Below, one piece after another: positions 27,700 to 47,806 of a stretch of DNA of 64,000 bases. The stretch is from positions 1,178,001-1,242,000 of the forward strand of contig JAIXMG010000002.1 in the NCBI GenBank assembly GCA_025201345.1, written 5' to 3'. The stretch's first letter is position 1; each line of letters starts with the position of its first letter. The notes under the pieces are model-generated. The model was not told the DNA's origin and did not search any database. It saw nothing but the letters and a program-made list of their open reading frames with translations. This DNA is from Thamnidium elegans. Lineage: Eukaryota; Mucoromycota; Mucoromycetes; Mucorales; Mucoraceae. The position numbers and the translations under genes are program-made.

Positions 27700-27946
27700 T
27701 TTTTTTTGTAACGCACCCCCTCCTCCTTCTCTTTTTGTTGAAAGAGAGTTAGTACATATTTATATCCCTACCTTCACTTTAATTTATATTCCTTTAGCCT
27801 CTTTTGTATATATACGCACTATTTCCTGATATTGAAGCAAATGTTTTTTTTATTTAAAAAAATAAAAAAAGTAAAAAAAATAATATAAAAAGATAAATAA
27901 AAAAAAAAGTGGTAGAAAGAAAAAATAGTTTATGAGAAAAAGTCTA

Positions 27947-28861
27947 TCAATTGATTACGTAGCCAGAATCGAGATTACGAAGTGGTTTTCTCAAGACTTG
28001 AACAATTGTATTAGCCTTGTTCTTGAGATCTAGGAAACAAACTTGAACAGTATTTGTGTCTTCCAACATTATTTGAGTCATCACATTCACATTGATTGCT
28101 CCTTCCCCACTTAAGTTATATATCGCGTTATCAATTGACGTTAAGTATTTCTCGAGTTCCTTGAAGGTAGTTTCATGCGGTGCACTAATTTTTTCTGCTT
28201 CTTCAAATAGTCTTCTTAACCGTATCAAAATATCTTCAAGATCTCCAGTAAGATCCTTTCTATTTTTCTTTTTACTAAAGTATTTGATTAATTGTGAAGT
28301 AGTGGCATAGAAACTAGCAAAACAAAGGATATATACGGGGTTTGCAGCTAAACTGATATATTTCGCCATACTTGCTCCCGTTATCAGTTCCCCAGCTGCG
28401 CCGATACCTAACATTCCAAGGGGAAATGCTCTTCCTACAGATTCACAGACTGCCAGTACAGCATCACGACGGCGGACCCTTTTAACGGCTTGTAATTCAG
28501 AGTTCGTATTGCTGTGACATTCAGAAATTTCTTTTTTGGTATTTTCTATTTTGGCCATGTAGGTTTCAAGAATTTCCATTGTGTTATTGGCGGTGTCTTT
28601 TATTCTGCCAAGAACGCGAATATTAAGTTCATCAATACCTTGTATAATGGATAGGCTATCTTTTATAGTGCGCAGTTTGCCATCAATAACTTCATATTTG
28701 TCAGCAGTCTCTGTCATAGTGGCAAGTAATAAACTGTGTGCGTTGCGGTAATCGTCAAGAAATTTAACTATTTTAGGATCATTTCCGTATTCTTTGATAT
28801 TTACAAGCTTAACATTCATAACTTCGATTAAATGTTCCAAAAATTTTTCAGTGTTCATCAT
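27947..28861 (-). CDS. Array gene A1: class I helical protein with central hydrophobic hairpin, 304 aa
   Basis: Intronless. Residues 1-140 are predicted mostly helical and polar; about 146-193 is a hydrophobic stretch (G-M-L-G-I-G-A-A-G-E-L-I and N-P-V-Y-I-L-C-F-A-S-F) ended by the basic cluster K-K-K-N-R-K; the remaining 110 residues are again helical and polar. There is no N-terminal signal peptide. Class I relatives are A2 (broken), A3, D1, D2 and D3 (broken). The helix-hairpin-helix layout is like the helical pore-forming protein fold (ClyA/Hbl/YaxAB group), but no detectable sequence signature was used. It is divergent from the class II remnant at 29460. The C-terminal motif is degraded here (G-Y-V-I-N). 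Function unknown. Confidence 0.8.
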   Translation of the reverse strand: MMNTEKFLEHLIEVMNVKLVNIKEYGNDPKIVKFLDDYRNAHSLLLATMTETADKYEVIDGKLRTIKDSLSIIQGIDELNIRVLGRIKDTANNTMEILETYMAKIENTKKEISECHSNTNSELQAVKRVRRRDAVLAVCESVGRAFPLGMLGIGAAGELITGASMAKYISLAANPVYILCFASFYATTSQLIKYFSKKKNRKDLTGDLEDILIRLRRLFEEAEKISAPHETTFKELEKYLTSIDNAIYNLSGEGAINVNVMTQIMLEDTNTVQVCFLDLKNKANTIVQVLRKPLRNLDSGYVIN

Positions 28862-29459
28862 TTTTTAGTAAGTAAAAGAAAAGGGGTTGTAATATTTAAA
28901 TAAAATTGAAATATAAACGTATATAAAAGTGGATATTGTTTTATTAATGAGAGAAAAAAAATAGCCGCATTTATATATACTTATTTTTGAAAATAATTTA
29001 GGACGGTGGGAAATAACATGAAATAAACAAAACCTTTATGGATACATGCGGATTAATCGGAACAACAGCGGAATATCTAGTTAAAACTAGGTTACATGAT
29101 ACTAACAATTGTGTTACTTGAAATAAATTAACTAAGATGCGCTTTGTCCACAATAACTATAAACAGTTGTGAATAATAGAAAAATAGCAATACGTATATG
29201 ACATTATATTCGTATATAAGCCTGTGCAAGTCGATATGAATACATCACACTTCTTAAGATTATGTCTATATTACTTGGATACAACAAGGATGTGGTTAAA
29301 AAGAAGAAGAAAAAAGATGCCCATAACTATTTATTTATATTGGATTGGACAGGACACTAAATATATGTAACACTGATCCGTGGCGTATTATCATCAAATA
29401 ATTTATTTTTAGTTGCGTTTCTTTCTTTCCCAAAAATACTCAGCATTCTAAATTTATAA
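28862..29459. promoter_or_regulatory. Divergent spacer between A1 and the B0 remnant
   Basis: About 600 bp. Upstream of A1, reading the minus strand, is TTTTCTTTTACT followed by A/T sequence to the ATG; very similar text lies upstream of A2 and A3. No gene is seen. Confidence 0.45.
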
Positions 29460-29643
29460 ATGAAAGAAGAAGAAAAACTAAGGCATGTCTTTAACGAGTT
29501 AGAAAACGAAGTAGGTGCTATACTAGCTTTGATGGATAGAGTTGATAGGTTACGGAACTTCATTTACTGTTGACACAAAATAAAAATTTAGAAGCATTAG
29601 ACAATTCAAGAGATAAATCGTGCATAATATGGCAAATTAAAAA
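29460..29643 (+). pseudogene. Array remnant B0: truncated class II gene
   Basis: From 29460 an open frame of 37 codons starts M-K-E-E-E-K-L-R-H-V-F-N-E-L-E-N-E-V, clearly homologous to the start of B2 (E-E-E-K-L-G-R-V-L-N-E-L-E-N-K-V). It ends at a TGA. After a gap the text D-N-S-R-D-K-S-C-I-I-W-Q-I is readable and matches B2 N-D-W-K-D-K-S-D-I-I-R-Q-I, so about 20-25 codons in between are deleted. The rest of the gene is missing. It stands head to head with A1, as B1 does with A2 and B2 with A3. Confidence 0.75.
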
Positions 29644-32600
29644 AAAAAAATACTTAGCTATTTATCGCGGTAAAGGAAAACAAAACGCCAAGCGGGGGTA
29701 CACGAAAGAGTGCCCGAAAAGAAACTTCTTTTTGAATTCTTTATAATAACGCGCCACTAACCTTAAATTTTTCAAATCTTAATGATGTTTGTTTTTTTCG
29801 AAATTCCGATGATGTTAAAAAAAAGGATATCTCAAGTTGTACATTAGACATGGTCATATAAGACTGATGCGGTCCTAACAAACAATTCATGGGAAAGCAA
29901 ACTTTTATTGTAAGTATGAAAATACTGATAGCTATAAACTTTTTTTTTTTCAATAAACCAAATCCAATGTCAATAAACATGGTACATTCAACAAATACTT
30001 TATACGAACAGTGCCTGAAAAAAGCTTATCGCTCCAGTACGTTCTTTTTCTTAATTTTTTTTTCAATTGCATTTAAGTATATATATATATATATATAGCA
30101 GGCTACTCCAAACAGGATCTCAAAGTGGCTCTCAAATGAAATCATCCTTATATTTCTGGGTATATTTAAGATATCCTTCAAGTAAGAGGTCTTATTTTCT
30201 AGATCCTTAAAGACAAAAGAATAAAGTCACTGTTAAAGTTCGACCACCTCTCCCGATTCTTTTGTTGAGGCGAAGAGTCTTGTATCATTAAAGTCTTAAA
30301 TTCCGTTAAAACAGGCGCTGGATAAGAAGACGAAGAAGACGAAGGCAAAAAATCCCCAGCATGCCCAAGGCCACCACGGGAAGCCATGTTCTCCACCCGA
30401 AAAAAAAGGGGGGGCCAGAAAAAAAGACAGGATTAATGGTCCCAAAATAAGATGAATAACCGCTACTCTTTATTCAATAGAGTTTTTTTTTAAAAAAAAC
30501 TGCATGTCTACAACAGAAAAAAAAACACAATCTTTAAACAAATCTAGAGCATTACCTAATGTTCCCTGTACCTAAACTACTATTGCAACTAAACATTAGA
30601 GCTTGATCTCGTTAGATGCAGAACAATACCTTTTTTTTTTTTTTTTCAATTGCACGTTTGGAACTTTTTTATTATTATTAGGTCTGGACCTGTGCATGGA
30701 CCTTACTGTCGATATAGAAATCGTAAAACCGTATTATCTTTTTTTTTAAAAAAATGTTTGACTACAGTACATCTATTTTGAAATAGAACTGGAAAGTATT
30801 TATTATAGTTTATTTATTGACGTGGACTTTAAACCACAAAAAAAAAAAAAAGTAACTACTATGTAACCAAAAAAAAGAGTTATTTGAATTAATTGAAGCA
30901 TTGTTTCCCTTTTTTTTTTTAATTTTTCATTTCTATTAAGCATTAAAAAAGATACACATTAGCCACTCTCACCCTTTTTGGAGTGAGAATGTTGCCCGGG
31001 AATGGCCGCGAGGAGGCTTGTATCATGCATTCCCTCTACTTTTAAGGAGAGGTAAAAGAGAGCAAGAGAGAAACCATAGGTCTTTGGTTAGGAAAGAAAA
31101 TAATCGATCAGACGCGATAATATCATGTCATATCACTATGGGATGGTGCTTTATTATCTTTAAGAGTCGCCTACTCAGAGAGTTTCCTCCAGTTTTATAC
31201 ACTTCCCCCATTCAATGCAAGACATTACCACGCTCATTCGCTAGAGGATCACTGTCCACACACCAATAGTTGGCGTTACTACCAATGAGGGTCTCACCCG
31301 GATAAAGAAACAAAAAAGAGGGAATTCGCATTCTTTTTTATACTTTTTTTTCGCGGAGTATAAACAAAGTTTTGAGTTTGAATTTGAAAAAAGTAAGCTC
31401 CTGATTTGATGTAAGAGATAAAGAGGGAACAAGCCACATTGACTATTTTTCGTACTTGGTGCGCATCATCTTTTGTTCGTTTATACGAATGATTAGAAAT
31501 AAATAAAGCTTCATGTAAAAGAGAACATATTCTTCATTCGTATTCATGTAAAACTATTTTTTTTTCAAAGGGAGATTTAACTGGTTTAGTCTCACAGTAA
31601 TACAAGTATTCCACTTTGAGCTTCAGACAATCGGAGAAGAATACTTCAAATCAGGCACCTGTATATTTAAATAGTATATTTACAGCCAGAGAATGAGCTT
31701 TTTATGTTGCAACCAAAAGAACATAAATCGTATATGTCTATCTACCTAAAATTCCACGTATTTTTCAAGAGAGGATATAAGCAAAGTAAACCAAGAGCAA
31801 CTAGATTATGTTGAAGCTGAAGTAGTCTTTTTTTTTCATTTTCTTGAGAATGAGGAGCAATATCTTTTGCATATAAAAAATCCATTTATGGCAAGAACTT
31901 TTTTTTTTATTTATAGTCCTTCAAAAGTCACAATGAGGGGATTAAAAGACTGGAGTAAAATTGAAGTTGTCAAACAGACTTCTACTACTTTTACTATTTG
32001 TTGTCGAGTTGTATTTCGGAAATTAAACAAGGGTTTGTCGTTGTTGATCATTACCTTTTATGTCAAGTTAAAAATATATTCCATCTCTATTTAGGACAAC
32101 CAGTTTAAAGCGTATAAAATTCACAAAACTGTTTTATTAACAATTGCTGTTTTGAAATAAAATACAAGAATACAAGATCGTTGGTAAAAAAGTAATAAAA
32201 TATAGTTACGAAAGAGAAACGTAAAAAAAGGAAAAAGTTTAAATAGCCAAAAAAAAAAAAAATACAAAGCACATGATTCATAAATAAACTTATTCCTAAC
32301 ATACTATCTGCTCATGTAATCCAAATAAATATTTACAATAGGCGATCGATAATAAACATATTTGTTTGACATTAGCGTAATTACAATGATTTGCTTTCTA
32401 GTGGTGTCCACATTAAGTAAATTGAACATTGGATATAACTGTTGGTATAGATGTATTTAAAAGCAACAACCATTAAAAAAAATAACTAAATGAAGACAGT
32501 TTAAACGGTTCATTTCGATATGGTGGTAACAGATAGTAATACGATATGCAATAGTTGGTCATCAACTGGTTCTTTTTTTGTGCGAAAAAATAAACAACAC

Positions 32601-32795
32601 AAAATAAATCTTTATATATAAGAAAATTTTTGATATATAATATTAAGTTAAAAGATTTTAAAAAAAAAGAAGACAACATTAAAGAAAAATGTGAAATCTT
32701 TAACTATAAGACAGATAAAATACTAGTTAAGAGACTCGCATATCTTCTTTTATTAAAAGAAAAAAAAGCTAAAATTTCATCGAAATAAACCTTTT
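29644..32795. other. 3.2-kb gene-poor spacer within the array
   Basis: A/T-rich, with several T-tract/A-tract junctions (for example about 30482-30499 and 30741-30755). Short open frames in the ORF-like size range have no protein character. A TA dinucleotide run is near 30078-30098. I see no RNA gene. It may be residue of deleted array genes between A1/B0 and A2/B1, but I could not align it. Confidence 0.45.
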
Positions 32796-33724
32796 TTAAC
32801 TATTGATTATACTTCTTTGGTTTATACGAAGAGGTCCTTTTCTAAAAATTTCTGCATTTTTTTCAGCAGTAGTAGTCATACCTTCAAAAGTAGTTATGAT
32901 CTTTTCAGTTTTTTCTAACATACCATCAATCAGCACTGAATGACTGAGAGGTCCTTCTCGGGACGAGCGTCTTACCATATTATCAATTGATCGTAAGTAA
33001 GTATTGACCTCATTCAGGGCATCTGTATGCGACTTATTAAATGCATCTGCCATTTCCAATAGATTGCCTAGCAGCTCCGAAACCTTCACGAGAGCTTTAG
33101 AAAGCGAACTTTTCTTGGATTTTCTTCCATAATACATAGAAAATCGCGAAACAACGGTATAAAGACTCGCAACATAAAGGAAATGTATAGGGCCTGAAAC
33201 TAAAGAGATATTCCCTGCTATTATTCTAGCTAGTATCATTTTTTCAGCTGCAGACACAGTCAAGAGGCTAAACATGGTTCCATTCGAAATTGTTTGACAT
33301 AATTCCTTTAAAGTGTCGAGACCAGGGCTATTTTTATCCAAATCTTGTATTTGGGATTCGGTTTTTTTCTTACTTTTTCCTGGTTTTTTTTTTTTTGGGT
33401 ATCTCTTATTTTATCTCTGTTGCTATCAAGTATTTTTAACAAGTAAAAATGTTTTGTCTTTCATTTCATCGGCGATGGTAGTCGTAATTACTTCGATGCG
33501 GTTTGCAATTAATAGTTCCTGTCGTATACGATCCAATCGTTCATTCGCCTTGCTATATTCGTAAGAAATATCACGCATTTGATCATAAAAGGTCGTATAT
33601 ACTTCGTGACATTGCATAATAATTGCACGTGATTCAATATCGTGCTATTTGAGCGTACCGATATCTAAAAAAAAACGGTACTTATTTTATCTATTAGGTT
33701 CTTGATTGAAGGGATAGAATTCAT
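32796..33724 (-). pseudogene. Array pseudogene A2: class I
   Basis: The start M-N-S-I-P-S-I-K-N-L-I at 33724 matches A3 (M-N-S-Q). Then follow a frameshift in a T run near 33670, an in-frame TAG before H-D-I-E-S-R, the readable part C-H-E-V-Y-T-T-F-Y-D-Q-M, and another frameshift near 33435. From there the frame is open to the end, with the hydrophobic hairpin (S-L-V-S-G-P-I-H-F-L-Y-V-A-S-L-Y-T-V-V) and the C-terminal I-N-Q-R-S-I-I-N-S. So at least three lesions, all in the first half. Divergent from B1. Confidence 0.8.
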
Positions 33725-33995
33725 TTTTTTGAGTAAAAGAATGAACTAAAGCAGTCAAAAAAAAAAATAGTTTGATACCATCTTATTTAAATAAATAAAT
33801 AAAATGGCTTATGGGCAACAAGGCCCCGAAAGCGTCTTCGTCTTGATAAAAACTAGTTTTGTATGTTGTATTTATGTTGTTACAACTCGTATACAAGAAA
33901 TTTATTTTTAGCTATTGTCCCCTTGATGTATATAAAAGCTCTCTCTTTTATTTTATTTATTTTTAAAAAAAAAGGACAAAAAGCTTTTATAAATA

Positions 33996-34927
33996 ATGGA
34001 TTATAGTATTTTAGTGGAAGAAGAAAAATTAAATCTAGTTTTAACAAGCTAGATCATGAAGCAGGCGTTATACTGGTTTTAATGGATAACTTCAATAATT
34101 TATGGAATGATATTTATAAAAGTTACAAAAAAACAATCTTGAGATACCAAAAGCATTTGATAGCTTGACTATATCTATCTATAACGACTGGAAATATAAA
34201 TCAAATTTAATTGAACAAATTGAAGGAAGTTTTGATAAAATATTGCAAGTTAAATATAGCAAAGAAAAAGAAGATACTAAACTATAATATAATAGCCGAA
34301 ATAAGCCAAGAAGTCCAAAAGATTTCAAAGACTGTAAAAGCATTCGAAATTGATAATAATGCTATTGATTATTTAGTTAAAGAGTGCAATAAGAAGGATC
34401 GACCAGAGAATCTATCTACAAAACCAATGATCTTATGGCCTCTTTATAACAAAAGATGTGGAATAAACACAATCACCAGTGTTGCTAGCGTATTATTAAT
34501 TTGGAACGTCTTTCATACAACAGACAACAATAACACCGGTAAATATTTAACTGGGAATGGTTGTATAGCCATGGTAGTGGTAGCACTGCAATATAACTAC
34601 GTCAGTAGAAAAATAAAGTCTCGGGTGCTAGACCATAACCTATCGAAACTTTCACGAAGCTCAATTGAAATGAACACCAGACTAAAAAACTTTGGCATTT
34701 TGGTTAGTATGGAGGCCAGACGAGTTCAAGCTGATACCGGTATAAGCCATGAAGGAGAAACGGAGAATTACAGCGCTGCGTTTGATATCGAAATAGATAG
34801 TTTAATAAGAATAGCTCAAAATTTACGGCACTGCCTTGAAAGTATTCAGCAGCAAACGTCACAAAATGAAAGCAATGCTAGAAAATTGGTTCTAAAGTGT
34901 AATCCTGATTTTCTTGTCAAGAACTAA
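33996..34927 (+). pseudogene. Array pseudogene B1: class II
   Basis: Begins M-D-Y-S-I-L-V-E-E-E-K-L like B2, then has three single-base-type frameshifts within the first 90 codons (near 34047, 34130 and 34240) when compared with B2. From 34260 it is open to 34921 and keeps class II features: E-I-S-Q-E-V-Q, F-E-I-D-N-N-A-I-D-Y-L, a hydrophobic centre (I-T-S-V-A-S-V-L-L-I-W and G-C-I-A-M-V-V-V-A-L), L-S-R-S-S-I-E-M-N-T and the end L-V-L-K-C-N-P-D-F-L-V-K-N. The conserved block AAAAGCTTTTATA lies just before the ATG, as in B2. Confidence 0.8.
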
Positions 34928-35557
34928 ATTTTAAAATACGTAAAAGCAGGTTTACACAAATTAAAATCGAATAAAAAAATATATGTCCATACACAATTCC
35001 TGGAGGGTTTTTTTTTGTGTGCATACTCCCCTCGCCTCTCTTTGTTTTGTTGGAAAAAATATTTAAGAGTTAAGACATACAATACTTTTATGGGAAACTA
35101 TAATTAAAATATATTGAAATAACCTTACAATGTTCGTTCATATGAACCTCATTATTCTTTTAGCAATATCATCTCGTTTTGAAGGCTTTAATAGTAGGTA
35201 CGTAGCGAATTTCAATAAAAGTGATATCATGTAACTATGCTCACGAGAATAGTTAGTATAATATGCGAAGTGATCAGAAGCATGCGTTACGCGGAAATAA
35301 AAAAAGCCTTCATCTTATGATTAGTAGCCAAAATGACTAAATGTTTATTATTGCGGAGAAGACTTTTTTTTTTCTCTGTGTAATCTTAATAAATATTAAA
35401 CTTTTAGGTTTTAGGTGGCACGTTCTAAAAAGAAATAAGGAGTCAGTACTCTGTTTTTGATGCTATTATTTATAAAAGACCGTAATTTTGCTCCCCTTTT
35501 TGTAAAAATAAACATCTAAACATTTTTACATTTTTACATATACAAAGTAATATTTCA
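34928..35557. promoter_or_regulatory. Spacer between B1 and C1, partly duplicated at 45.64-45.82 kb
   Basis: About 630 bp. The part 35150-35345 is similar to 45640-45820: both contain AGTGATATCATGT, then ACGAGAATA and ATGACTAAATGT in the same order. It holds the promoter of C1 (a TATAAAA at about 35471). No gene is seen. Confidence 0.55.
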
Positions 35558-36451
35558 ATGGAAGAAGAAAAACTTGACAGCTACTTGGAAAAACTCGAGG
35601 AAAAGGCAGGCACTGTATTGCTTTCTATGGAAGATTTTCATAAACTATGGTGTTCTTTAATTTATGAAGATTACGCTTCAAACAACTTTAAAATATTCGG
35701 AAAACAGGATACATTGCATATATCTGTTTACAGTGATTGGAAATATAAGTCCGATACCATGTTACAAATCCTACGAAATCTCAAGAGTATATTTAGGGAG
35801 TTAAGAATAGTAATGGCCATGAAAAAATTCGATAAGGACGTAGTAGAAGAAATAAATCTAGAGATTCAAATGTTTTTGAAAGCCGTAAAAAGTTTTGAAG
35901 TAGACAAGTACGCCATTGAATTCTTGCTTGACCAATATAAGAAAGAAATTCAAGTAGTAAGACCAAGGAAAATGCAAAAGGAAAAACCTTTGCCTATTCC
36001 AAAAGAGAATTCTGCAGCAACAGTACCTGGTTTATCTATTGGGTTACCCAATATTATGAAGAGAGGGATGAATAATATTTGTAAAGTAATGCCCGTATCA
36101 GCGCCTGTCAATACTAGAATGAAGAATGACTCTGGAGATCGCCAAAAAAGATTTGACGGGCATATTAGTGACCTAACTAGACTATCCCAATCCTCTGTCA
36201 AAATGAACACAGATTTAAAGTCTTTCGGTCTTACTATTAGTACTGTAATACAGAACATTCAAATTAACAAGGTAAAATCTACAGATTCAAATGAAACACT
36301 AGGTATAATGGTTCAAGCAGACACTTTGATAAAGATCACTCAGAAGTTACAATATTTTTTCGAAAGCATTCAATTTGAAGCCTTTAAAAAAGAAGAAATT
36401 ACCCAAGTTCTAGTTTTGAAAAGTAATCCTCATTTTCTTATAAATCAATAA
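35558..36451 (+). CDS. Array gene C1: class II helical protein with polar centre, 297 aa
   Basis: Intronless, starting M-E-E-E-K-L-D-S-Y-L. Class II landmarks: S-M-E-D-F-H-K-L-W, a conserved Y-S-D-W-K-Y-K-S-D (residues about 68-76), F-E-V-D-K-Y-A-I-E-F-L-L, L-S-Q-S-S-V-K-M-N-T-D-L-K-S-F-G, and the C-terminal L-V-L-K-S-N-P-H-F-L-I-N-Q. The central segment (about 150-200) is Lys/Pro-rich and polar, unlike the hydrophobic centres of B1 and B2. No signal peptide. It precedes the class I gene D1 head to tail at 438 bp. Function unknown; the constant pairing suggests that the D1 product is its partner. Confidence 0.8.
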   Translation: MEEEKLDSYLEKLEEKAGTVLLSMEDFHKLWCSLIYEDYASNNFKIFGKQDTLHISVYSDWKYKSDTMLQILRNLKSIFRELRIVMAMKKFDKDVVEEINLEIQMFLKAVKSFEVDKYAIEFLLDQYKKEIQVVRPRKMQKEKPLPIPKENSAATVPGLSIGLPNIMKRGMNNICKVMPVSAPVNTRMKNDSGDRQKRFDGHISDLTRLSQSSVKMNTDLKSFGLTISTVIQNIQINKVKSTDSNETLGIMVQADTLIKITQKLQYFFESIQFEAFKKEEITQVLVLKSNPHFLINQ

Positions 36452-36889
36452 AGTTTCTCCTTAAAAAATCGCTTGTAACAATAACATTGCACAATTTAAA
36501 TTGTAATAAACCTTTTTTTTAAAAATAAAATAAAGAATGCCAAGGACTCACACGGATAAAATAAAAAAGAAGTCTAGTTCAAGTTCTATACAATTGAAAA
36601 CAAAGTTAACTACCTTGATAGAGATTTTTGATTCAGAAAAGAGAATATTACACCAGCTTCTATTTAAAATTATCAAACCTTGATACGGTGTAATGCGGCA
36701 CCAAATGTTCTTCTCCTTTTTGTACTCACTTAATTTCGGAACAGATTCATAACAATCAGTGTGATGAGTCACAGATAAAGTTTTAATGCTAATACACTGT
36801 AATTTTGTGTATATATACATACTTAAATTGAATCAGAAATTTTTTATTTTCTCGGATTTTTTATTTACACATATACACAAAAATAAACC
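36452..36889. promoter_or_regulatory. Spacer between C1 and D1
   Basis: Contains the 3' end of C1 (AATAAA near 36506) and the D1 promoter side. A minus-strand frame of 90 codons crosses it but shows no protein character. Confidence 0.4.
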
Positions 36890-37789
36890 ATGTCGTCTGT
36901 AGTTGCATTCAAGTCTTTATCTACCTCTATGATCGGTCTACTCGATACTTTTGATGGCCTATGTGATAAGGTTCTTGCAGAGCATAATGACAAAGCTCGT
37001 GACCTTACCAAATTATGCTATAACTTACATCAAGATTTCTATGACCATATGGTTAATGTTTCCTCTGTTTGCCTGGAGTCATCAAACACAATCAGGGGTA
37101 TCCAAACAGATCTTACAATTGCAAAAAGAAATCAAAAATTTGACAGGGAGACTTCTGCTGACATAAAGGAAAGCGTAAAATCATTATCCGCTATAGTTAA
37201 AAAACATAAAAGACAAACAGGGGATATCAATTCGAAAATTGTTGAGACGCAAGAAAGTGTTGGTAGAGCGCAAGTGAGTCTTGCTGCTGATAGACCTAAA
37301 TTTAAGTTCTTGGAGAAAATTAATACTCGTGAGACTCTCGAATTTTTAGGAGCAATTCCAGGTGTTGATTCCAATATTGTTTTCGTGTTTGGGCAAGCTA
37401 TTATTGGTGCTGTTGCAGTAGCTATTAATGGTATTTACAGTTTGATTAACCGCAAGAAAACAAAACGATATGACGTTATTTCGGAAGTGTTAAAGGAATT
37501 ATCACAAAAATTAAAAGAATTATTGGCAGTATCATTTAAATTTCACCAGTCTCTTGATAAAACTCTTACCAACCTCGAAAGCTATACAGCCTTAGTTGAT
37601 AAATTAGTAAAATATTCTGATTCTGAAAGACACAATACTAGACTTGTTATCATGGCCGAAGATATGTTACCGGATACGGAAGAACTGCAAAAAGATTTCC
37701 AAGGTATAAGGGAGCAAGCTTTAGTGAATAATTCTGATTTAGGAAGGGCTATACTTCGCCTTAGTCCACGCAGCTTAATTGGTATCTAG
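36890..37789 (+). CDS. Array gene D1: class I helical protein with central hydrophobic hairpin, 299 aa
   Basis: Intronless. The N-terminal half is helical, with L-C-Y-N-L-H-Q-D-F-Y-D-H-M matching A3 V-C-H-D-L-Y-T-M-F-Y-N-H-M. A hydrophobic stretch at about 152-187 (F-L-G-A-I-P-G-V, I-V-F-V-F-G-Q-A-I-I-G-A-V-A-V-A-I) ends in the basic R-K-K-T-K-R, and a helical C-terminal half ends in L-S-P-R-S-L-I-G-I. No signal peptide or intron. Best match in the window is the pseudogene D3, then D2. Paired with the class II gene C1 upstream. Probably membrane-active or membrane-inserted from the hairpin; the actual role is unknown. Confidence 0.82.
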   Translation: MSSVVAFKSLSTSMIGLLDTFDGLCDKVLAEHNDKARDLTKLCYNLHQDFYDHMVNVSSVCLESSNTIRGIQTDLTIAKRNQKFDRETSADIKESVKSLSAIVKKHKRQTGDINSKIVETQESVGRAQVSLAADRPKFKFLEKINTRETLEFLGAIPGVDSNIVFVFGQAIIGAVAVAINGIYSLINRKKTKRYDVISEVLKELSQKLKELLAVSFKFHQSLDKTLTNLESYTALVDKLVKYSDSERHNTRLVIMAEDMLPDTEELQKDFQGIREQALVNNSDLGRAILRLSPRSLIGI

Positions 37790-38441
37790 AGAGCAATAAA
37801 TCTCTGTTTATTCTTTTATTTTTTGCATAACATATAATTTCTAAATATTATTAATAAATTCATACCACTTAAAATTTTAAATGTCATTTTGGCTATATTC
37901 AAGACAACAAGATTGTAGTTCGTCCTCTTCAAACGACTTAAATACATCGCAGTGCCAATTTTTTTTTTTTTTTTGTAATAAGCAATATGTCCTGTCCAAA
38001 CAGCTTAAGTACATTGAAATATCTATTGTAAACCTATGTTTGTACTACTTTAACGTATTTATATTCGTAAGTACCTTTATTGTTAAAATTAACTAGAGCT
38101 TACATATTATAAAGTAATAAAAAAAAATGCACACTCGAAAAACTAATTTACAACTGTCTATTCAGCGGTTTTATGAGATCGGATTACGCTCTTAAAACGA
38201 ATAGCGGTAATAGTGGTGTTGGTGTTGAAATCAGGTACGCAGACTATTCACCCTTAAATTGAATATTACTAAATCGAGCAGTTACTGTATTATATCTCTA
38301 TCTTCACTTTAATTTATAATATTTTAACCTTTCTTGTGCACTATTTTCTGATATTGAGGTACTTTTTTTTTATTTAATTAATTAAAAATAAATAAACAAA
38401 TGCAAATAACAAATAAATAACATGGAATAAAAAAAAAGCTT
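37790..38441. other. Spacer between the two duplicated blocks
   Basis: About 650 bp between convergent D1 and A3. Contains poly-A-type 3' end sequences for both and nothing else that I can support. Confidence 0.4.
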
Positions 38442-39371
38442 TTAAGAATTGATTATGCTTCGCGGATTTATATCAAGTAGTGATTTTCTTAAGCTTTCTG
38501 AATTACTTTCAGCCTGAGTTTTCATAGATTCAAAACTACCTTGAATATCCCCAGTTTTTTTTAACATAAGACTAGTTAAGCCCGAGATATTGAGAGGCCC
38601 TTCTTCATTTAAGCGATTTATTGTCTTATCGACCGATGTTAAGTAGTGTTCAAGATCCCTGATAGTTTTTGTGTGTGAAACAGTAAAGCTATCTGCCTCA
38701 TGTAATAACCTGTCTAGCAATGTTACAATCTTGGTAAGAGCATCAGTAAGCGATTTTCTTTTCTTTGTTTTTCTAGAGCATACATATAATTGCGAAATGA
38801 CAGTACAAATACCAGCTATACAAATAATATGTATAGGACTTCCAATGACACCGATACTGCTCTCTACTATTTCAGACGCAATCAATTCTTCAGCAGCACC
38901 CACGGCCAAGACGCCAATGGCTCCTCCGGCTATATCTTTAAATATTTTTTGAAAAATTTCGATACCAAAGGATTCATTTTCCAGGCTTAGTATTTGAGAG
39001 TTGGTTTTTTCCTTACAAGTTATAATTTTTCCTTGGACATTTTCTATTTTCTCCTTGTAGTTTTCAAGCGTTTCTAATAAACCATCAACTGTTTTTTTTA
39101 TTCCAGATAGAACACTAGTATTACGCACTTTAAGGCCTTGTATAGATACTAGTTCCTGTTCGATAATCTCCACCTCTCTAACTATATTATTATACTCAAC
39201 AGATATACCGCACATATGATTATAGAACATCGTATATAAGTCGTGACATACTTTAATAGTTTCACATGTTTCAGCATCATGTTCCTGAAGTATATTTTTG
39301 AGCTGATTGATCTCTCCAAAGGTAATAGTTAGAGTTTCTACTAAATGTCTAAAAAAAAATTGAGAATTCAT
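38442..39371 (-). CDS. Array gene A3: class I helical protein with central hydrophobic hairpin, 309 aa
   Basis: Intronless. Residues 1-145 are helical with heptad-like spacing (H-L-V-E-T-L-T-I, I-E-N-V-Q-G-K-I). A hydrophobic hairpin spans about 148-198 (G-G-A-I-G-V-L-A-V-G-A-A and I-G-V-I-G-S-P-I-H-I-I-C-I-A-G), ended by S-R-K-T-K-K-R-K. The second helical half contains L-E-H-Y-L-T-S-V-D-K-T-I, matching A1 and A2, and the end is D-I-N-P-R-S-I-I-N-S. No signal peptide. It is head to head with the class II gene B2, 289 bp apart, so the two are likely co-regulated. This is the most intact A copy. Function unknown. Confidence 0.83.
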   Translation of the reverse strand: MNSQFFFRHLVETLTITFGEINQLKNILQEHDAETCETIKVCHDLYTMFYNHMCGISVEYNNIVREVEIIEQELVSIQGLKVRNTSVLSGIKKTVDGLLETLENYKEKIENVQGKIITCKEKTNSQILSLENESFGIEIFQKIFKDIAGGAIGVLAVGAAEELIASEIVESSIGVIGSPIHIICIAGICTVISQLYVCSRKTKKRKSLTDALTKIVTLLDRLLHEADSFTVSHTKTIRDLEHYLTSVDKTINRLNEEGPLNISGLTSLMLKKTGDIQGSFESMKTQAESNSESLRKSLLDINPRSIINS

Positions 39372-39660
39372 TTTTTTATTTTAGTAAAAGAAAACGGTAA
39401 ATCAAGCCGTTAAAAAACTAACTTATCAAATGATGATTCTTATTTCTTTATATTGATTGTACCCTAAATTTTAAAAAAAAAGGGGGGGGGGACTTGTAAT
39501 ACATGTAACACAAACACCCAATCATCTCTGGCGCATTCTTTAAAAGCGACGCTTCTTGATTTGTTTGTTATTATTTACTGTTTCCTTTTTCACATAAAAG
39601 CCCTTCATTGACTTTTCATAAAATTTATTTAACTAAAGTGCAAAAGCTTTTATATAAGTA
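39372..39660. promoter_or_regulatory. Divergent promoter A3/B2
   Basis: On the A3 side the minus strand reads TTTTCTTTTACT before the ATG, as upstream of A1 and A2. On the B2 side CAAAAGCTTTTATATAAGTA directly precedes the ATG, nearly the same as at B1. These are the only clearly conserved upstream blocks of the array. Confidence 0.55.
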
Positions 39661-40575
39661 ATGAATTACAACGTTTTAATGGAAGAAGAAAAACTAGGCC
39701 GTGTGCTAAATGAACTAGAAAATAAAGTAGATGATATACTGGTTTCGATGGATACATTTAATAAGTTATGGAACGAAATTTACCGAAGCTACAAAAATAA
39801 CAATTTTGAAAAACCAAAAGCATTTAATGGCTTGATTATATCTATCTATAACGATTGGAAAGATAAGTCAGATATAATCCGACAAATTGAAGAATATTTT
39901 GATTATCTATTGCACGAACTAAAGGCAGCGAAGAAAAATAAAATACTAAGCAGGAGTATAATAGTTGGAATAAACCAAGAAGTACAAAATCTTTCAAATA
40001 CTGTAAACAAATTCGAAATTGATAAAAATGCCATTGACTATCTAACTAAAGAATGTCAGAAAAACAAACGGCAAGAAATTTTGCCCGCAAAATCGATTCT
40101 TTTTGGGCCTCTTTATAAAAAAATTGGAATAAGTACGATAACTAGTGTATTTTTAGCTTTGGGCTTTTATCGTGCACTACAGAGCAACACTTTTAGCAAT
40201 ATTGATAAGTACTTCATTGGACGCGGTGGTCTAGCAATTGTGACTTCGGCAATACCATACAAAAAAGCAAAGCTTTGGATGCTCAATTATAGCTTATCTA
40301 AACTGTCTCGAAGCTCAATTGAAATGAACACTAAATTAAGAAATTTTGGCTTTTTAGTTAGCACCAAGATCGGAAGAGTTGAAATCGGTGTAAGCGGAGA
40401 TTTAGAAACAAATAATTATAGTGCTGCATTCGACATCGAAATCGATGGCTTCATAAAAATAACTCAAAAGTTGTGGGATTGCTTTAAAAGGATTCAAGAA
40501 CGGACTTCGCATAATGAAAACAATGCTAGAGATTTGGTTCTGAAGCATATTCCTCGTTTTCTTATTAAAAACTAA
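39661..40575 (+). CDS. Array gene B2: class II helical protein with hydrophobic centre, 304 aa
   Basis: Intronless. The frame opens M-N-Y-N-V-L-M-E-E-E-K-L. Because a TATA-like box abuts the first ATG, and C1 begins at the equivalent of M-E-E-E-K-L, the true start may be codon 7 (39679). Landmarks: S-M-D-T-F-N-K-L-W, Y-N-D-W-K-D-K-S-D, F-E-I-D-K-N-A-I-D-Y-L, two hydrophobic segments (about 156-171 and 185-199), L-S-R-S-S-I-E-M-N-T and the end I-P-R-F-L-I-K-N. No signal peptide. This is the only intact B copy; B0 and B1 are broken. Its partner by position is A3. Function unknown. Confidence 0.82.
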   Translation: MNYNVLMEEEKLGRVLNELENKVDDILVSMDTFNKLWNEIYRSYKNNNFEKPKAFNGLIISIYNDWKDKSDIIRQIEEYFDYLLHELKAAKKNKILSRSIIVGINQEVQNLSNTVNKFEIDKNAIDYLTKECQKNKRQEILPAKSILFGPLYKKIGISTITSVFLALGFYRALQSNTFSNIDKYFIGRGGLAIVTSAIPYKKAKLWMLNYSLSKLSRSSIEMNTKLRNFGFLVSTKIGRVEIGVSGDLETNNYSAAFDIEIDGFIKITQKLWDCFKRIQERTSHNENNARDLVLKHIPRFLIKN

Positions 40576-40705
40576 ATTTTAAAATGCGTATTGGACAGTT
40601 AGATATAACTTAATGTACTGGATTTAAAGAATAAATTGATCTGTGCCTTATATCACTTACACCTCCCACTAATGGACTTCTAACTGAAAGGTGAAAGTTT
40701 TTAAC

Positions 40706-40746
<41 letters not shown>

Positions 40747-43451
40747 GAGAAATTTGACTGTGGTTCTAATGTTTAATCTCTTCAATGCGAAGATATAGTA
40801 TATTATTTTTTAAATAGTAAGCTGGAGGAGCTTAAGAACTATTTCAAGTATTATGGACCATCATTTTTTGTCCATTATATCTTTAAAACATTTATCTTCT
40901 TTCATTTTATAATGCGTATGTTTCGATAATAGCTTAAATCTTTGTACGTTACTTATTTTATAGATGATTTTAATATGTATGTATTTAAGTCACGTCGGTT
41001 AGACTATTCTGTCTTAATGTTTTATTTTCTTCCTCTTAATAATCTATCTGTAACATTCTTAATAAAGCTTGCTGTTATTTTCACAGTACAATATAATATG
41101 TTTGGCTTATTTGGTTTAACATTTGGCATAATACTTGACAGCTACAATTATGCAATGTGTACATGTAAATGAGATGCTGGATCTTCTCATTATATTATCT
41201 TTTATTTAATAAAAAAGTATAAAGCGTACTTCTCTCGGGTACGGCCTTATAGTTTATACTCTTTTAATTATATTTTTGTTATTATACTCTGTAATTGACA
41301 GTTGCATTTTATTTGTACTACAACGACCCCTATTTTAAAACTCAAACAAATGCAAATACATCTTTCTTTTATATCTTTCTTTTTTTTATTTTTACTTTCC
41401 TTTTCTTTTCTTAATCTCATCCGCCAATTGCAACATGTATTTTTATTTTATTTATGTATTTTGTTTTTTTCTTTTGACATTGAGCATGTAGCAACAAAAT
41501 ATGCCATATTACCCAAGTCGGTTATAAAAAGGTAGTAACACTAAAACATTCCAAAGGGACAAGAGCAAAATAATTGAAAGAAGAGAGCAATTGTTATTGC
41601 TAAAAAAGAAAAGCTCATTGGGATATTGCGGCTTAAAAAATCACTCATCTAAGAAATCACTGCTAATTTTACCAGCTATAACAAATAATGGTTCTTAATT
41701 TATTAAAAAACAGAAAAAGTTTTTTGAACCCAAGTTGTATAATACAAAATAGTTGTTTTAAATATATCTTTGATAAAAAAAATTAAAAACGTACTCTTTT
41801 GTTTTTTTTTCGTTTTTCACTTTTGGGGGTCAACCCCTTTTGTTTTTTGGCCAAAAATCACGGATGTTTTGCAATTTCTCTGGATCCACTTTGTTTTTTG
41901 TTATGGGCAAATTATTGACAATAAAGTACTTTTTCATACGCTTCTAATCCATTTTAATTTATATTTTTAGTGCAAAAATTGAAAGAGTAAATACGCTTTT
42001 AATAAAACGCCAGCTTAAGGTCTGCTTAAGGTCTGCTTAGCTAAAGCACCAAGTAAAAAAAGGTCTTTAAACAGTAATTGCTCGTTCATTATATTTGGTA
42101 ATAATATGATTTTTAATGCATTAGAACCGCCTGGAAGAATATACTATTACCATTGTTTTTTCTATAAGTATAGGTAGATTTGGTCCGGAATAATCGCTAT
42201 AAAAATATAGAACGAGCAGTTTCAATATTTTATATTAACGACATCTTCCTAATGACTACCTTTTACTATGCAACATAAGCAAAAAAAAATCGCTTCGTGA
42301 CTTTTAATTCTATCTTATTTTAAGCACTGTTAAAATTATTTTTTTAGAAGTGGTGTCTGGATGTTCATGTAAAAAATAAATATTCTAAAAAAGATGACGG
42401 ACATTCAGTAAAGGATTATAATAATTTAAGTAGTTCTTGAGCTCACCTCGGCTACTGTAAAAAAAAATATGTTGTGTATCTTTTTTCTGCAAGAGCTCAA
42501 ACATTAAAATATTCAAATTCTATTAAAAAAATTTATCGTTGCCAATTAAAATAATACAGAGCTATGCGCTGAAATGACAAATAACTAATTACTTTTGTAA
42601 GATTTATTCATTTCCCTTTCTCTATCTGTTCTATTATTATCTTTTGGTTTATGAATACATTGATAGATAATGCACTCTTGAAGACTAGAAGCATACATAA
42701 AATTTCCTCATAAATCAAATAGCTAAACGCATTTCAAATAAATTAGGGATATATAGTTATCCCGTCCACTGTTCGAAATAAGGGTATGCTATTTAGGTTT
42801 AAGAATGTATTTCTTCCAGATTTCGACCACTACTGTATTCAGGTATCTATAGAAAACGAACTTATTCAAAAAAGCAAAGGAAAACAAAAGCTACATTCTC
42901 CTTTGTGTTTGAAGAAGATGGTATGAATATTATTTCTTTAGCGACTTAGCTCAGCTTCTTCTTATAAAATCAAACGAGGGTTCCATCGGAATTAGAGTTA
43001 TATTTTTTATCTAAATAATAGATATAACCTTTTAGACCTAGTAAGACCGAAAGATAAACTTAAAAATCATGCATCTGTCAAGCAAGTTACCCTATTCGAC
43101 AACTAAAGAAATGTGATCAAATCCCAGCTCAACGTTTATAATCTTCGCTTATACACAACAAGAGAACATGTGAGTATTACTAATGTGAAGGATTTAGAGA
43201 ATTTTTAAACTAAACGTACTAGTTGCTTAAATGACAGTCGAGTTTTATCTGTAATGCGGCAGTAAAGTTAGTTGCGACTAATGACAGATAAAAAAAAAAG
43301 ACAAGTATATAATACTTATAAAAAAACGGAATTAATATCCCCCGGAATCAGTTATATCAACTTTTTTTTATTTTATTTCACTATAAAAGCCCTCTTTTTT
43401 TGCTCGATTATGACCTCCTTTTTATAAAAATACATCTGATTAAAAATTATA
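40576..43451. other. 2.9-kb gene-poor spacer within the array
   Basis: A T run of about 37 bases at 40709-40745 is the longest homopolymer I noticed. A small tandem AAGGTCTGCTT pair is at about 42017-42038. Short open frames are hydrophobic T-tract translations. No remnant of an array gene could be aligned by eye. Confidence 0.45.
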
Positions 43452-44312
43452 ATGGAAAAAAAACTTTTTTATGATATCTTACAAGGGCTAGAAATACGAG
43501 CGCGCGAAGTTTTACACTCTATGAATAATTTTCATGACTTATGGAAAGACTTGGTATACGAAGACTACACAAGAAACGACTTGAAAACGTTTGGAAAATG
43601 GATTGGCTTACATATATCAATTTATCTTAATTGGAAAGAAATATCTGAAACAAATAACAAAATCGAACAAACTCTCAAGAGAATATCGGAAGAGTTAGAA
43701 ATCGTAAAATTAACAAGAAAACTTGATAAATATACAGTTACGGAGGTAAATAAAGAAGTTCAAGGGTTTTCAGAAGCATTAAAAAGTTTTAAAATTGACA
43801 AATACGCTTTTGAGTCCTCAATTGAATGTTGTAAGAAAGACATAAATGTGGAAGCAGCAAGAACGATGCAAACAGTAAAAATCCAATCACCTTTAAATAA
43901 TATTGAAGACTCTTCTTTTTTGATTTCGATAGTAAAAAAAATTTACGAACATACGGTTGGATATTTTCGAAAAATTTATCTGACGATAAATAAGGGTTCC
44001 TGCGATCAAGATAATACCGCTACCAAACTTTCTAATGATTTATCTAAAATGTCGCATCAAGTAACCACAATGAACACTGCTTTAATGTCTTTTTACCATT
44101 CAATTAGTAAAATAACTGAAATAGTCAAAGATAACTTTATAGCTACAAGTTTAGGGAAACCATATATTGCAGATATTCAAATTGAAAGATTGATACAGAT
44201 TATTCAAAAACTCCAAAGTATTTTTAAAACAATTCAACATGGAATCTCTCAAAATGAAAGCCTTACTGTCGATTTGGTTTTAAGATGTAACCCTAATTTT
44301 CTTATTGATTAA
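43452..44312 (+). CDS. Array gene C2: class II helical protein with polar centre, 286 aa
   Basis: Intronless, preceded by a CTATAAAAG box at about 43381 and TTTTTATAAAAATA nearer the start. It parallels C1: S-M-N-N-F-H-D-L-W, H-I-S-I-Y-L-N-W-K-E, F-K-I-D-K-Y-A-F-E, L-S-K-M-S-H-Q-V-T-T-M-N-T, and the end L-V-L-R-C-N-P-N-F-L-I-D. The middle (about 140-185) has no long hydrophobic stretch. It precedes D2 head to tail at about 306 bp. Function unknown; same caveats as C1. Confidence 0.8.
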   Translation: MEKKLFYDILQGLEIRAREVLHSMNNFHDLWKDLVYEDYTRNDLKTFGKWIGLHISIYLNWKEISETNNKIEQTLKRISEELEIVKLTRKLDKYTVTEVNKEVQGFSEALKSFKIDKYAFESSIECCKKDINVEAARTMQTVKIQSPLNNIEDSSFLISIVKKIYEHTVGYFRKIYLTINKGSCDQDNTATKLSNDLSKMSHQVTTMNTALMSFYHSISKITEIVKDNFIATSLGKPYIADIQIERLIQIIQKLQSIFKTIQHGISQNESLTVDLVLRCNPNFLID

Positions 44313-44618
44313 TAAAAAATAAAATCTTGTCTCATGCTAGTCTAAAAAATCTTGAATACATATTTTTTTATGAATCAATATGGGAAATAGTTATATTGCT
44401 CCTATCTCTTGTTCTAGAAATCATTTTGAAACTTAAATTAGCGATTAAATGAATAGTAGAATATAGATAAGCCTGGAATAAAACACTGACAGAGTTTCAC
44501 GATGGATGATTAATTTTACTGATATTAAAACCAGAGAAGCTCGTTTAGCTATATTTTACTTGTTCTTTCTCATAAAAAAAAAAGAATCCATTTATTTCAA
44601 GTTTCTTTCCAACGTTCA
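44313..44618. promoter_or_regulatory. Spacer between C2 and D2
   Basis: 306 bp with the C2 3' end (AATAAAA right at its stop codon) and the D2 leader. Nothing else is seen. Confidence 0.4.
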
Positions 44619-45473
44619 TTGCCGTCTATGAATAACTTCCTTGCAGCTTTTAGTAGTTTACATGATCAAGTATTCCAGGGGCATAAAAATGAGGCTCTCG
44701 ATCTTGCCAACATATTCATTGGGTTGCTTGAAGAACTATATGACTTTATGAGCTGCGTTTCTACTGCTTATAATGATTCAGCAAACTCGATGAGAAATAT
44801 ACTTTGCGAACTTAATATTGTGGAAGCACTCCAAAGATTTGATGAAAATACTTTACATGAAATAAAACCAAGTATGCAAAAGTTATCTGAAATAATCGAA
44901 AGCTACAAGAATGAAAACAAGGTTATCTTTAAAAAAATTATTCAATCTAAAGATAGAGTTGAAAGAGAACAAAGATGCCTTGAAAATGTCATGCCTAATT
45001 TTGATATGCTCAGGGAACTCGGCTATGCGGATGGACTTAGTATTTCCAATGAAGACGATTGGTTTTCCAAAACTAAAAAAGCTCTTATTCTCTCTTTTTC
45101 AAACTTTATTAACGAAGTCGAAAAAATAGCTAACTCGAATAGAATAAAACGATTCGGTAATTTATCAGAGTCATTACAAACGCTTAATCATAAAACAGAG
45201 GAATTTTCAAAAATGACATTTCAATTTTATCAGTCTATTGATGAAAGTCTTACCGACATCGAAAATTACACTTTAACAGTTAACAGACTGTTGAGAGGCC
45301 CCCTTTTGCAAGAAAACAATGAGCGAATCGTTTTATTGGCGACATTTATGGTACCCGAAACAAAAGAACTCCAAAAGAATTTTCAAAAATTAAGGGAAAA
45401 GGCTTTGCAAAACAAAGGAGAATTGGGAGATATGCTTATCCATTTCAGTCCTCGCAGTTTAATTAATAACTAG
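44619..45473 (+). CDS. Array gene D2: class I relative lacking the hydrophobic hairpin, 284 aa
   Basis: Intronless. It aligns with D1 in both helical halves (L-L-E-E-L-Y-D-F-M, F-Y-Q-S-I-D-E-S-L-T-D-I-E-N-Y-T) and in the end F-S-P-R-S-L-I-N-N. The central segment (about 140-175) reads L-S-I-S-N-E-D-D-W-F-S-K-T-K-K and is polar or charged where A1, A3 and D1 have the hydrophobic hairpin. So the fold halves are kept but membrane insertion in the same way is unlikely. It is paired with C2, whose centre is polar too. Function unknown. Confidence 0.8.
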   Translation: MPSMNNFLAAFSSLHDQVFQGHKNEALDLANIFIGLLEELYDFMSCVSTAYNDSANSMRNILCELNIVEALQRFDENTLHEIKPSMQKLSEIIESYKNENKVIFKKIIQSKDRVEREQRCLENVMPNFDMLRELGYADGLSISNEDDWFSKTKKALILSFSNFINEVEKIANSNRIKRFGNLSESLQTLNHKTEEFSKMTFQFYQSIDESLTDIENYTLTVNRLLRGPLLQENNERIVLLATFMVPETKELQKNFQKLREKALQNKGELGDMLIHFSPRSLINN

Positions 45474-45486
45474 TGGCCCTTTTCGG

Positions 45487-45518
<32 letters not shown>

Positions 45519-45822
45519 TATATGCTATAATGAACTTTTGCTTTTTCCTAAATAATTCGAGAGAGAAACTGTCTGTATCGCTTTAATTATGTTTTAAATT
45601 AATTTTTGTTGATTATAAAAGAACCTTCCATTTCTTAATAATACGAGCCTTATCGTTTTTCTAAATGTTTAGTGTTATTATCTCGTGTTTAAGGCTGCAA
45701 TATTTGATACTGCTTCAAATTCGAACGTTGTGAATTCTAATATAAGTGATATCATGTTATTATGTTTACGAGAATATCTAGTACCTACGGCGTAATGATT
45801 TCTATGACTAAATGTGTATCTA
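45474..45822. other. Spacer D2-D3 carrying a copy of the B1-C1 spacer
   Basis: After a long T run then A run (45486-45516) comes sequence similar to 35150-35345 (AGTGATATCATGT, ACGAGAATA, ATGACTAAATGT). It runs straight into the middle of a D-type coding sequence at about 45820, indicating a deletion junction. Confidence 0.55.
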
Positions 45823-46453
45823 ACGTCTCTTCAGTTTGCGACGAGTCATCAAGCTCAATAAGGAACATCCACTTGGAGCTTACGGTTGCAACAAGAAATC
45901 AAAATTTGATATAGAATCTTCTCTTGAAATATGAAATAGTGTAAATAAATTAGCTGCTATAGTTGAAACCCATAAAAGCAAATCGAAAATTGCCAATACG
46001 CAAGAGAGCGTTAATAGAGCCCAAATGCACCTTGATAGCGATAAACTTCATACAAAGCTCTTGGGACAACTTGCTAGTAGCAAAACACTGGCTTTTTTAG
46101 GGGCAATGCCGGGTGTTAATTCCAACGTCTATTTTGTGTTCGGACAAGCCATTATCGATGTTGTTGTGATAGTTATTAATGATATTAACCGCTTGATCCA
46201 TCACCGTGAAGCAAAAAGATATGATGTAATTTCTAATGTTCTAAATGAATTATCGCAGAAACTAAAAGACTTATTGGAAGTATCGTTTAAATTTTGTCAG
46301 TCTCTTGATAAAACCCTTACCAACCCTGAGAATTATACAGTTTTAATTGAAAATTTGGTAAGTTTCTTTGATTCTGAAGATATGTCACCAGATACAAAGG
46401 CGCCGCAAAAAGATTTCCAACATATAAAAGAGCAAGTTTTAATCGGCAACTAG
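45823..46453 (+). pseudogene. Array pseudogene D3: class I, 5'-truncated
   Basis: Begins in mid-gene with S-N-V-S-S-V-C-D-E-S-S-S-S-I-R (D1: V-N-V-S-S-V-C-L-E-S-S-N-T-I-R), has stops around 45912 and 45943, then is open from 46025 to 46453 with a D1-like hairpin (F-L-G-A-M-P-G-V-N-S-N-V-Y-F-V-F-G-Q-A-I-I). Relative to D1 a few codons are missing before D-M-S-P-D-T, and it stops before the S-P-R-S-L-I motif (ends E-Q-V-L-I-G-N). Not functional as a full class I protein. Confidence 0.8.
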
Positions 46454-47658: not shown

Positions 47659-47806
47659 GTTCTAATTTAAAATTTTATCGTCAATTCGGGTCTTTTTTTT
47701 TTTTTTTTTTTTTTTTTTATAAAATAGATTTGTGAAGGTTGAAAAATGATATTTCTATCATTGCTGTAATCTATTTCTTATTTTTGTTGGGGAAATCGAA
47801 ACTTAC

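What the first reader, a model, noticed from the sequence alone, without database searches (positions are those of the whole stretch)
27947..46453. Array of intronless two-class paired genes: a candidate undescribed two-component system
Seen directly: eleven genes/pseudogenes in 18.5 kb fall in two classes of about 285-310 codons. Class I: A1, A2 (broken), A3, D1, D2, D3 (broken). Class II: B0 (remnant), B1 (broken), B2, C1, C2. They are placed as class I + class II pairs: A1|B0, A2|B1 and A3|B2 head to head; C1-D1 and C2-D2 head to tail. Known: obligate two-component helical pore-forming proteins such as YaxAB/XaxAB are encoded as adjacent pairs of leaderless, mostly helical proteins with an inner hydrophobic region. 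Inference: the repeated pairing implies that the products work together, perhaps assembling at membranes in defence, competition, self/non-self recognition or membrane remodelling.
Basis: partly seen in the sequence, partly recalled or inferred. Interest (0 to 1): 0.9.

Follow-up and report, generated by a model that had tools for sequence, protein, structure and literature searches.

The report
Fungal paired pore-toxin-like helical genes
A mould carries a cluster of paired, apparently intron-free genes for two related classes of long helical proteins whose predicted shape most resembles bacterial pore-forming toxins of the ClyA type; if that is right, they would be a new membrane-acting two-part system in fungi, but neither pore formation nor partnership has been tested.

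Summary
Eleven related genes or remnants (7 single open frames, 4 broken) lie at 27,947-46,453 in two classes that a tree separates (100/100). The genome is that of Thamnidium elegans (Mucorales). The classes are remote paralogues: profile score 86.6, against at most 26.0 in 100 permuted controls. Named relatives came only from T. elegans, Helicostylum pulchrum and Mucor flavus, where class I and II members carry neighbouring numbers; the search was demonstrably incomplete.

The same genome holds a second array, in which a class I gene is followed by an equal-sized partner (E1-F1, plus a broken E0-F0), and also one solitary class I gene. Pairing is recurrent, not strict.

Best reading: a fungal, ClyA-like, probably two-part membrane-acting family under rapid turnover (confidence 0.43).

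The parts
27947..28861 (-). A1, class I, intact, 304 aa, inner hydrophobic stretch
29460..29567 (+). B0, class II remnant (36 codons, 56% to B2), head to head with A1
   Evidence: DNA repeat family D2
32799..33653 (-). A2, class I, broken (4 stops inside the match)
34025..34924 (+). B1, class II, broken (2 stops inside the match); the closest row in the tree, P0013 of Helicostylum pulchrum, is annotated as a 311-aa protein
35558..36451 (+). C1, class II, intact, 297 aa, no hydrophobic head
36890..37789 (+). D1, class I, intact, 299 aa, strongly hydrophobic head
38442..39371 (-). A3, class I, intact, 309 aa; modelled (m82742541d2b6)
39661..40575 (+). B2, class II, intact, 304 aa; modelled (m0884b28007c5); head to head with A3, 289 bp between
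43452..44312 (+). C2, class II, intact, 286 aa, no hydrophobic head
44628..45473 (+). D2, class I, intact, 281 aa from its ATG, no hydrophobic head; relatives in a second T. elegans assembly (P0002) and in M. flavus (P0006)
45822..46450 (+). D3, class I, broken copy closest to D1
35200..35258 (+). 59-bp stretch upstream of C1, 81% to 45725-45783 upstream of D3; these two were the only matches in the genome search; suggests that D3 is the rest of a C>D copy that lost its C
45725..45783 (+). second copy of the 59-bp stretch, upstream of D3
30104..32337 (.). gap between B0 and A2: stretches that recur elsewhere in the genome
41013..42744 (.). gap between B2 and C2: dispersed repeat; 41013-41988 has 29 further copies of about the whole stretch at 85-91% among the matches listed

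Best explanation
A Mucorales gene family of about 300-residue, all-helical proteins without a signal-peptide-like start, with the ClyA-type plan (a five-helix bundle plus an alpha4-alpha5 head). An ancient duplication gave two classes that are mostly kept next to each other and duplicated as pairs. Proposed mechanism: a class I and a class II product associate through their bundles, as YaxA and YaxB do, and their head regions insert into or line a membrane lesion, the hydrophobic head anchoring and the less hydrophobic head lining the opening. With no signal peptide, and with copies gained and broken quickly, the likeliest role is inside the fungus or between fusing or competing hyphae: membrane permeabilisation in defence or recognition. 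Shown here: two homologous classes; adjacency in two loci of this genome; broken copies. Indicated by gene numbers only: adjacency in two other species. Supported but not proven: the ClyA-like fold. Inferred: complex formation, membrane insertion, biological role.
Confidence: 0.43

Rival explanations
1. Ordinary lineage-specific helical-bundle or coiled-coil proteins (scaffold, tether or unknown) whose resemblance to ClyA-type toxins is only the common arrangement of long helices; neighbouring classes are left over from tandem duplication.
Against: One small family fills much of the lists (10 of the first 10 and 29 of 50 rows; 24 of 50) and, where a hydrophobic stretch exists, it sits at the head position; neighbouring numbers recur in other genera and a separate pair array exists.
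Confidence: 0.32
2. A selfish or conflict locus in which one class is the harmful partner and the adjacent class its antidote; copies decay when the conflict is lost.
For: Adjacent pairs, head-to-head placement, 4 of 11 copies broken, narrow known distribution, D1 without a detected relative outside T. elegans.
Against: Both classes are homologous and similarly long. Broken copies occur in both (A2, D3 of class I; B0, B1 of class II), so neither is visibly the protected one. A class I gene stands without a neighbour of the other class.
Confidence: 0.12
3. Relatives of the HeLo/MLKL four-helix-bundle cell-death group known in fungi rather than ClyA-like proteins.
For: Weak MLKL_N matches in C2 (E 0.0081) and A3 (E 0.044), both below the curated cut-off; HeLo/MLKL-type domains act on membranes in fungal regulated cell death (passages of PMC12881547).
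Against: Only one of 8 class II and one of 9 class I members match, over about 50-80 residues; both models have five long helices and an internal head.
Confidence: 0.06

Closest known systems
YaxAB / XaxAB / PaxAB two-component alpha-pore-forming toxins (bacteria)
   Same: Two different helical subunits; fold matches to both A and B subunits; genes with neighbouring numbers (YE1984 and YE1985 for YaxA and YaxB in a passage of PMC5935710).
   Different: No sequence match reaches a cut-off; ours are 281-309 aa against 313-365 residues in most matched chains of that family (the YaxB chain shows 249); fungal; arrays; some members without a hydrophobic head; one class I gene unpaired.
ClyA/HlyE, Cry6Aa and tripartite Nhe, Hbl, Ahl, Smh, Mak toxins (bacteria)
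   Different: Identity 4-16% in the alignments; no function shown; eukaryotic genes.
Fungal gasdermins RCD-1-1/RCD-1-2 and HET-S/HeLo (fungal cell-death proteins)
   Same: A two-partner pore in fungal self/non-self recognition is a working precedent (passages of PMC12881547).
   Different: RCD-1 variants are alleles of a gasdermin, not neighbouring genes; no gasdermin or HeLo name among the Pfam rows shown.
Fungal aegerolysin + MACPF pairs (pleurotolysin A/B; recalled, no call)
   Same: Two-component pore formers in fungi.
   Different: Beta-rich folds (recalled); these are all-helical.

Membership tests
ClyA-family alpha-pore-forming toxins | Five-helix bundle (alpha1, 2, 3, 6, 7) with an alpha4-alpha5 connecting region (PMC6162564 section 2) | tested here: inconclusive
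ClyA-family alpha-pore-forming toxins | Membrane-active region between helices 3 and 6 | tested here: inconclusive
   Hydrophobic in 4 of 7 intact genes (A1, A3, D1, B2) and in 7 of 9 A- and B-type relatives scored; not in C1, C2, D2.
ClyA-family alpha-pore-forming toxins | Match to a curated family profile (Pfam Bacillus_HBL; NCBIfam MakE) | tested here: not met
   Best E 0.066 (HBL, A1) and 0.023 (MakE, one of 9), neither at cut-off. The review gives only 15-45% similarity within the family, so this lowers 'is a member', not 'works like'.
ClyA-family alpha-pore-forming toxins | Forms membrane pores as an oligomer | not testable with these tools
   Needs protein.
YaxAB/XaxAB-type binary systems | Two different subunits encoded by neighbouring genes | tested here: inconclusive
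   True of the window pairs and of E1-F1; indicated by gene numbers in H. pulchrum and M. flavus; not true of the solitary class I gene in L019.
YaxAB/XaxAB-type binary systems | The A and B subunits form a complex | not testable with these tools
   Only single chains could be modelled.
HeLo/MLKL four-helix-bundle proteins | MLKL_N profile match | tested here: not met
   16.1 bits (C2) and 13.7 bits (A3) against a cut-off of 27.

The most novel reading that the evidence does not exclude
A eukaryotic, fungus-specific family of two-component ClyA-like pore-forming proteins, kept as rapidly turning-over gene pairs in which class I subunits team with different partner classes (B, C, F), used by coenocytic moulds against their own or neighbouring hyphae, or against bacteria and viruses inside them.
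Probability: 0.27. Interest if true: 0.82.

Novelty: new variant of a known kind. Interest (0 to 1): 0.6.

Why it matters
If real, this would extend a bacterial weapon fold to a eukaryotic lineage, add an effector type to fungal immunity or recognition, which is little known outside ascomycetes (recalled), and give gene pairs that simple co-expression can test. Arrays in two loci are natural replicates for asking why two-component pores evolve from one-component ones, which PMC6162564 calls an open question (its section 4). I found no report of such proteins in fungi among the titles and abstract openings listed (20 of 201 papers; 15 of 23; 3 of 3; 1 of 1; 0; 12 of 107; 3 of 3); most subscription papers are not held.

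Tried and rejected
Bacterial or viral origin: a scan of the prokaryote genome collection (84,980 species) with class II patterns gave 215 pattern stretches, none a relative; viral contigs gave 402, none a relative. Such patterns reach only fairly close relatives, so a donor is not excluded.

Sequence matches to solved structures: class I and II profiles, nothing below E 0.02; the solitary class I gene, nothing up to E 1; F1 matches a designed coiled coil (E 5e-4), read as composition.

Viral fold library, class II model: best E 0.025, no coherent family by eye.

MLKL: no MLKL entry among the 50 rows shown; this excludes nothing.

Shared promoter motif: an 11-base motif seen upstream of two genes is not above chance (3 matches, 1.65 expected, 23 of 100 shuffles with at least 3).

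RNA families and tRNAs: none found in the window.

Diversifying selection: A1 against A3 is 43-65% identical in coding 60-column blocks but 70-78% in the 3' flank (75% over 142 bp). Flank constraint or gene conversion would do the same.

Mirror tree: I first read as A/D against B/C mirroring the pairs (so in notebook entry 3). On recheck only the A and the B groups are supported; the D genes are unresolved and C1 joins B at 80/79. The program also warns of long branches (A1, A2).

Amphipathic heads: the maximal moments of the C1, C2 and D2 heads (0.50-0.57) hardly exceed those of A3 and D1 (0.48, 0.46), so they are no evidence by themselves.

Limits of the homology searches: one search scored only the best 7,999 candidates and did not list D1's own protein, which one search found; one search did not list C1 or C2; (D1 alone) did not list D2 (34% identical). 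The three-genus distribution is a lower bound. Adjacency in other species rests on gene numbers and shared contig length, not DNA. The three unnamed rows (P0005, P0007, P0011) lie on contigs of 2.0-4.0 kb and do not bear on pairing. Own-genome searches score only the best candidates.

Rows dropped: P0007 and P0008 from alignment A5, and P0015, P0016 and P0017 from A6, as truncated or badly modelled; B0, P0001, P0008, P0009, P0016, P0017 and P0018 from the tree.

Full report
What is there. The window is G000:C12:1178001-1242000 of a 34.1-Mb genome in 64 contigs. Proteins that the window encodes are listed on a 2,251,901-base contig, and a gene model for B1 on that contig is named BDF21DRAFT_394836 [Thamnidium elegans], so the organism is the mould Thamnidium elegans (Mucorales). 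Between a PGAP1-type gene (Pfam E 4.5e-42 for one of its frames), ending near 27,700, and a gene at about 47,070-47,660 that looks like ribosomal protein eL28 (by eye, not tested) lie eleven copies of one gene family, seven open and four broken. Whole-genome searches with A1, A3, B2, C1 and D2 return only this cluster; D1 returns more (below).

Two classes, one ancestor. A tree of 22 rows (B0 is too short and was left out) puts A1, A2, A3, D1, D2, D3 and their relatives on one side of a branch and B1, B2, C1, C2 and theirs on the other, 100/100. hhalign of the two class profiles gives 97.7% probability, E 1.6e-12 over 247 columns. In a repeat with controls the score was 86.6, against 14.6 for the reversed profile and at most 26.0 in 100 heptad-block permutations. 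So the classes are old paralogues, and ClyA-family components likewise share one topology (PMC6162564 section 2). Inside the classes the A genes (99/98) and the B genes (100/100) hold together. D1/D3 and D2 are not resolved as one group, and C1 joins the B genes at 80/79 rather than C2; the program warns of long branches. An early duplication of a I+II pair into A|B and C>D is therefore compatible with the tree but not shown by it. A 59-bp stretch found in the genome search only upstream of C1 and of D3 suggests that D3 is what is left of a third C>D pair. The large gaps hold dispersed repeats, so the array was probably more compact once.

Is pairing more than one event? Named relatives are from Helicostylum pulchrum (two assemblies) and Mucor flavus: EDC94DRAFT_692996 (I) and 692997 (II); MFLAVUS_006991 (I) and 006992 (II); MFLAVUS_004939 (II), 004940 (II) and 004942 (I) on another contig; HPULCUR_000616 (II) and 000618, a gene model that runs from a class II-like end into a class I protein. 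The KT1a and KT1b genomes are described in PMC11385716 (whole text read). These numbers fit conserved pairs but partly reflect common descent from the same loci, and I saw no DNA. A second case came from the own-genome search with D1. On contig C7 at about 487.9-489.7 kb a 287-aa class I protein (E1; 95.2% probability to class I, 79% to class II) is followed after 88 bp by a 284-aa open frame, F1, with an inner hydrophobic stretch (Kyte-Doolittle 1.87). Upstream lie a broken E0 (42-44% to E1) and an N-terminal F0 remnant (43% over 37 residues, E 4.6e-5). F1 does not match class I or II and is single-copy in the search. The pair arrangement thus recurs, but the partner need not be recognisably class II. 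Against strict pairing, a class I gene of 322 aa ending PRSLIEL (96.9% to class I; score 76.3 against at most 33.4 in 60 shuffles) stands between a glycosyltransferase gene and an F-box/LRR gene at C7:343650-344618 with no such neighbour.

Membrane head. A1, A3, D1 and B2 have a hydrophobic stretch in the head region (19-residue maximum 1.46, 2.06, 2.07, 1.51); C1, C2 and D2 do not (0.55-0.56). Of the A- and B-type relatives scored, 7 of 9 have an inner maximum of 1.5 or more; P0012 and P0014 do not, nor do D2's relatives P0002, P0006 and P0007 or the C-type P0015. Division into an inserting and a lining subunit is my inference.

Selection and turnover. D1/D3 and B2/B1 open segments show a third-position excess and dN/dS near 0.3; A3/A2 (dN 0.53, dS 0.65) and A3/A1 (0.63, 0.85) are closer to neutral, the first including a broken copy; the other comparisons have dS above 1. 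Four of eleven copies are broken, and D1 had no relative outside T. elegans in a search that also missed D2. This is the pattern of a fast-turnover family.

Known relatives by sequence. In Pfam and NCBIfam nothing reaches its cut-off. Weak names include HBL (E 0.066, A1), MakE (0.023, one of 9), MLKL_N (0.0081 in C2, 0.044 in A3), SIL1 (0.0013 at best, 3 of 8 class II members) and a range of coiled-coil families. Profiles find nothing below E 0.02 among PDB sequences. Class II scans of prokaryote genomes and viral contigs found no relative. Of PMC6162564 I read sections 2, 4 and 7; of PMC5935710 passages; of PMC12881547 passages, with no occurrence of 'ClyA' or 'Mucor' in its main text.

Verdict. 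Observation confirmed. Interpretation partly supported: recurrent pairing and a ClyA/YaxAB-like fold are the best reading, while obligate pairing is weakened by one solitary gene and by a partner that is not recognisably class II. Function is untested.

Noticed in passing
L020:4724-6530 (G000:C7:487923-489729), broken copies at L020:3371-4307: Second array of paired genes (E1-F1 and broken E0-F0) in the same genome; F1 matches neither class and is single-copy in the search.
   Followed up: yes
L019:4151-5119 (G000:C7:343650-344618): Solitary class I gene ending PRSLIEL between a glycosyltransferase gene and an F-box/LRR gene.
   Followed up: partly
window 41013-42744: Dispersed repeat without a listed open frame of 90 codons or more; its first 976 bp have 29 further near-whole copies at 85-91% among the matches listed.
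   Followed up: partly
window 27785-27905 and 38315-38423: 3' flanks of A1 and A3 are more alike (70-78%) than their coding parts (43-65%).
   Followed up: partly
P0008 (Helicostylum pulchrum HPULCUR_000618), P0016 (Thamnidium elegans BDF21DRAFT_394836): Public gene models that seem to bridge gene breaks or fuse neighbouring copies; they may mislead homology searches.
   Followed up: no
PDB 8ii8, row 11 and row 17: A pink chromoprotein of the oyster mushroom Pleurotus salmoneostramineus is among the non-toxin fold matches of both classes; perhaps a fungal cousin of the fold.
   Followed up: no
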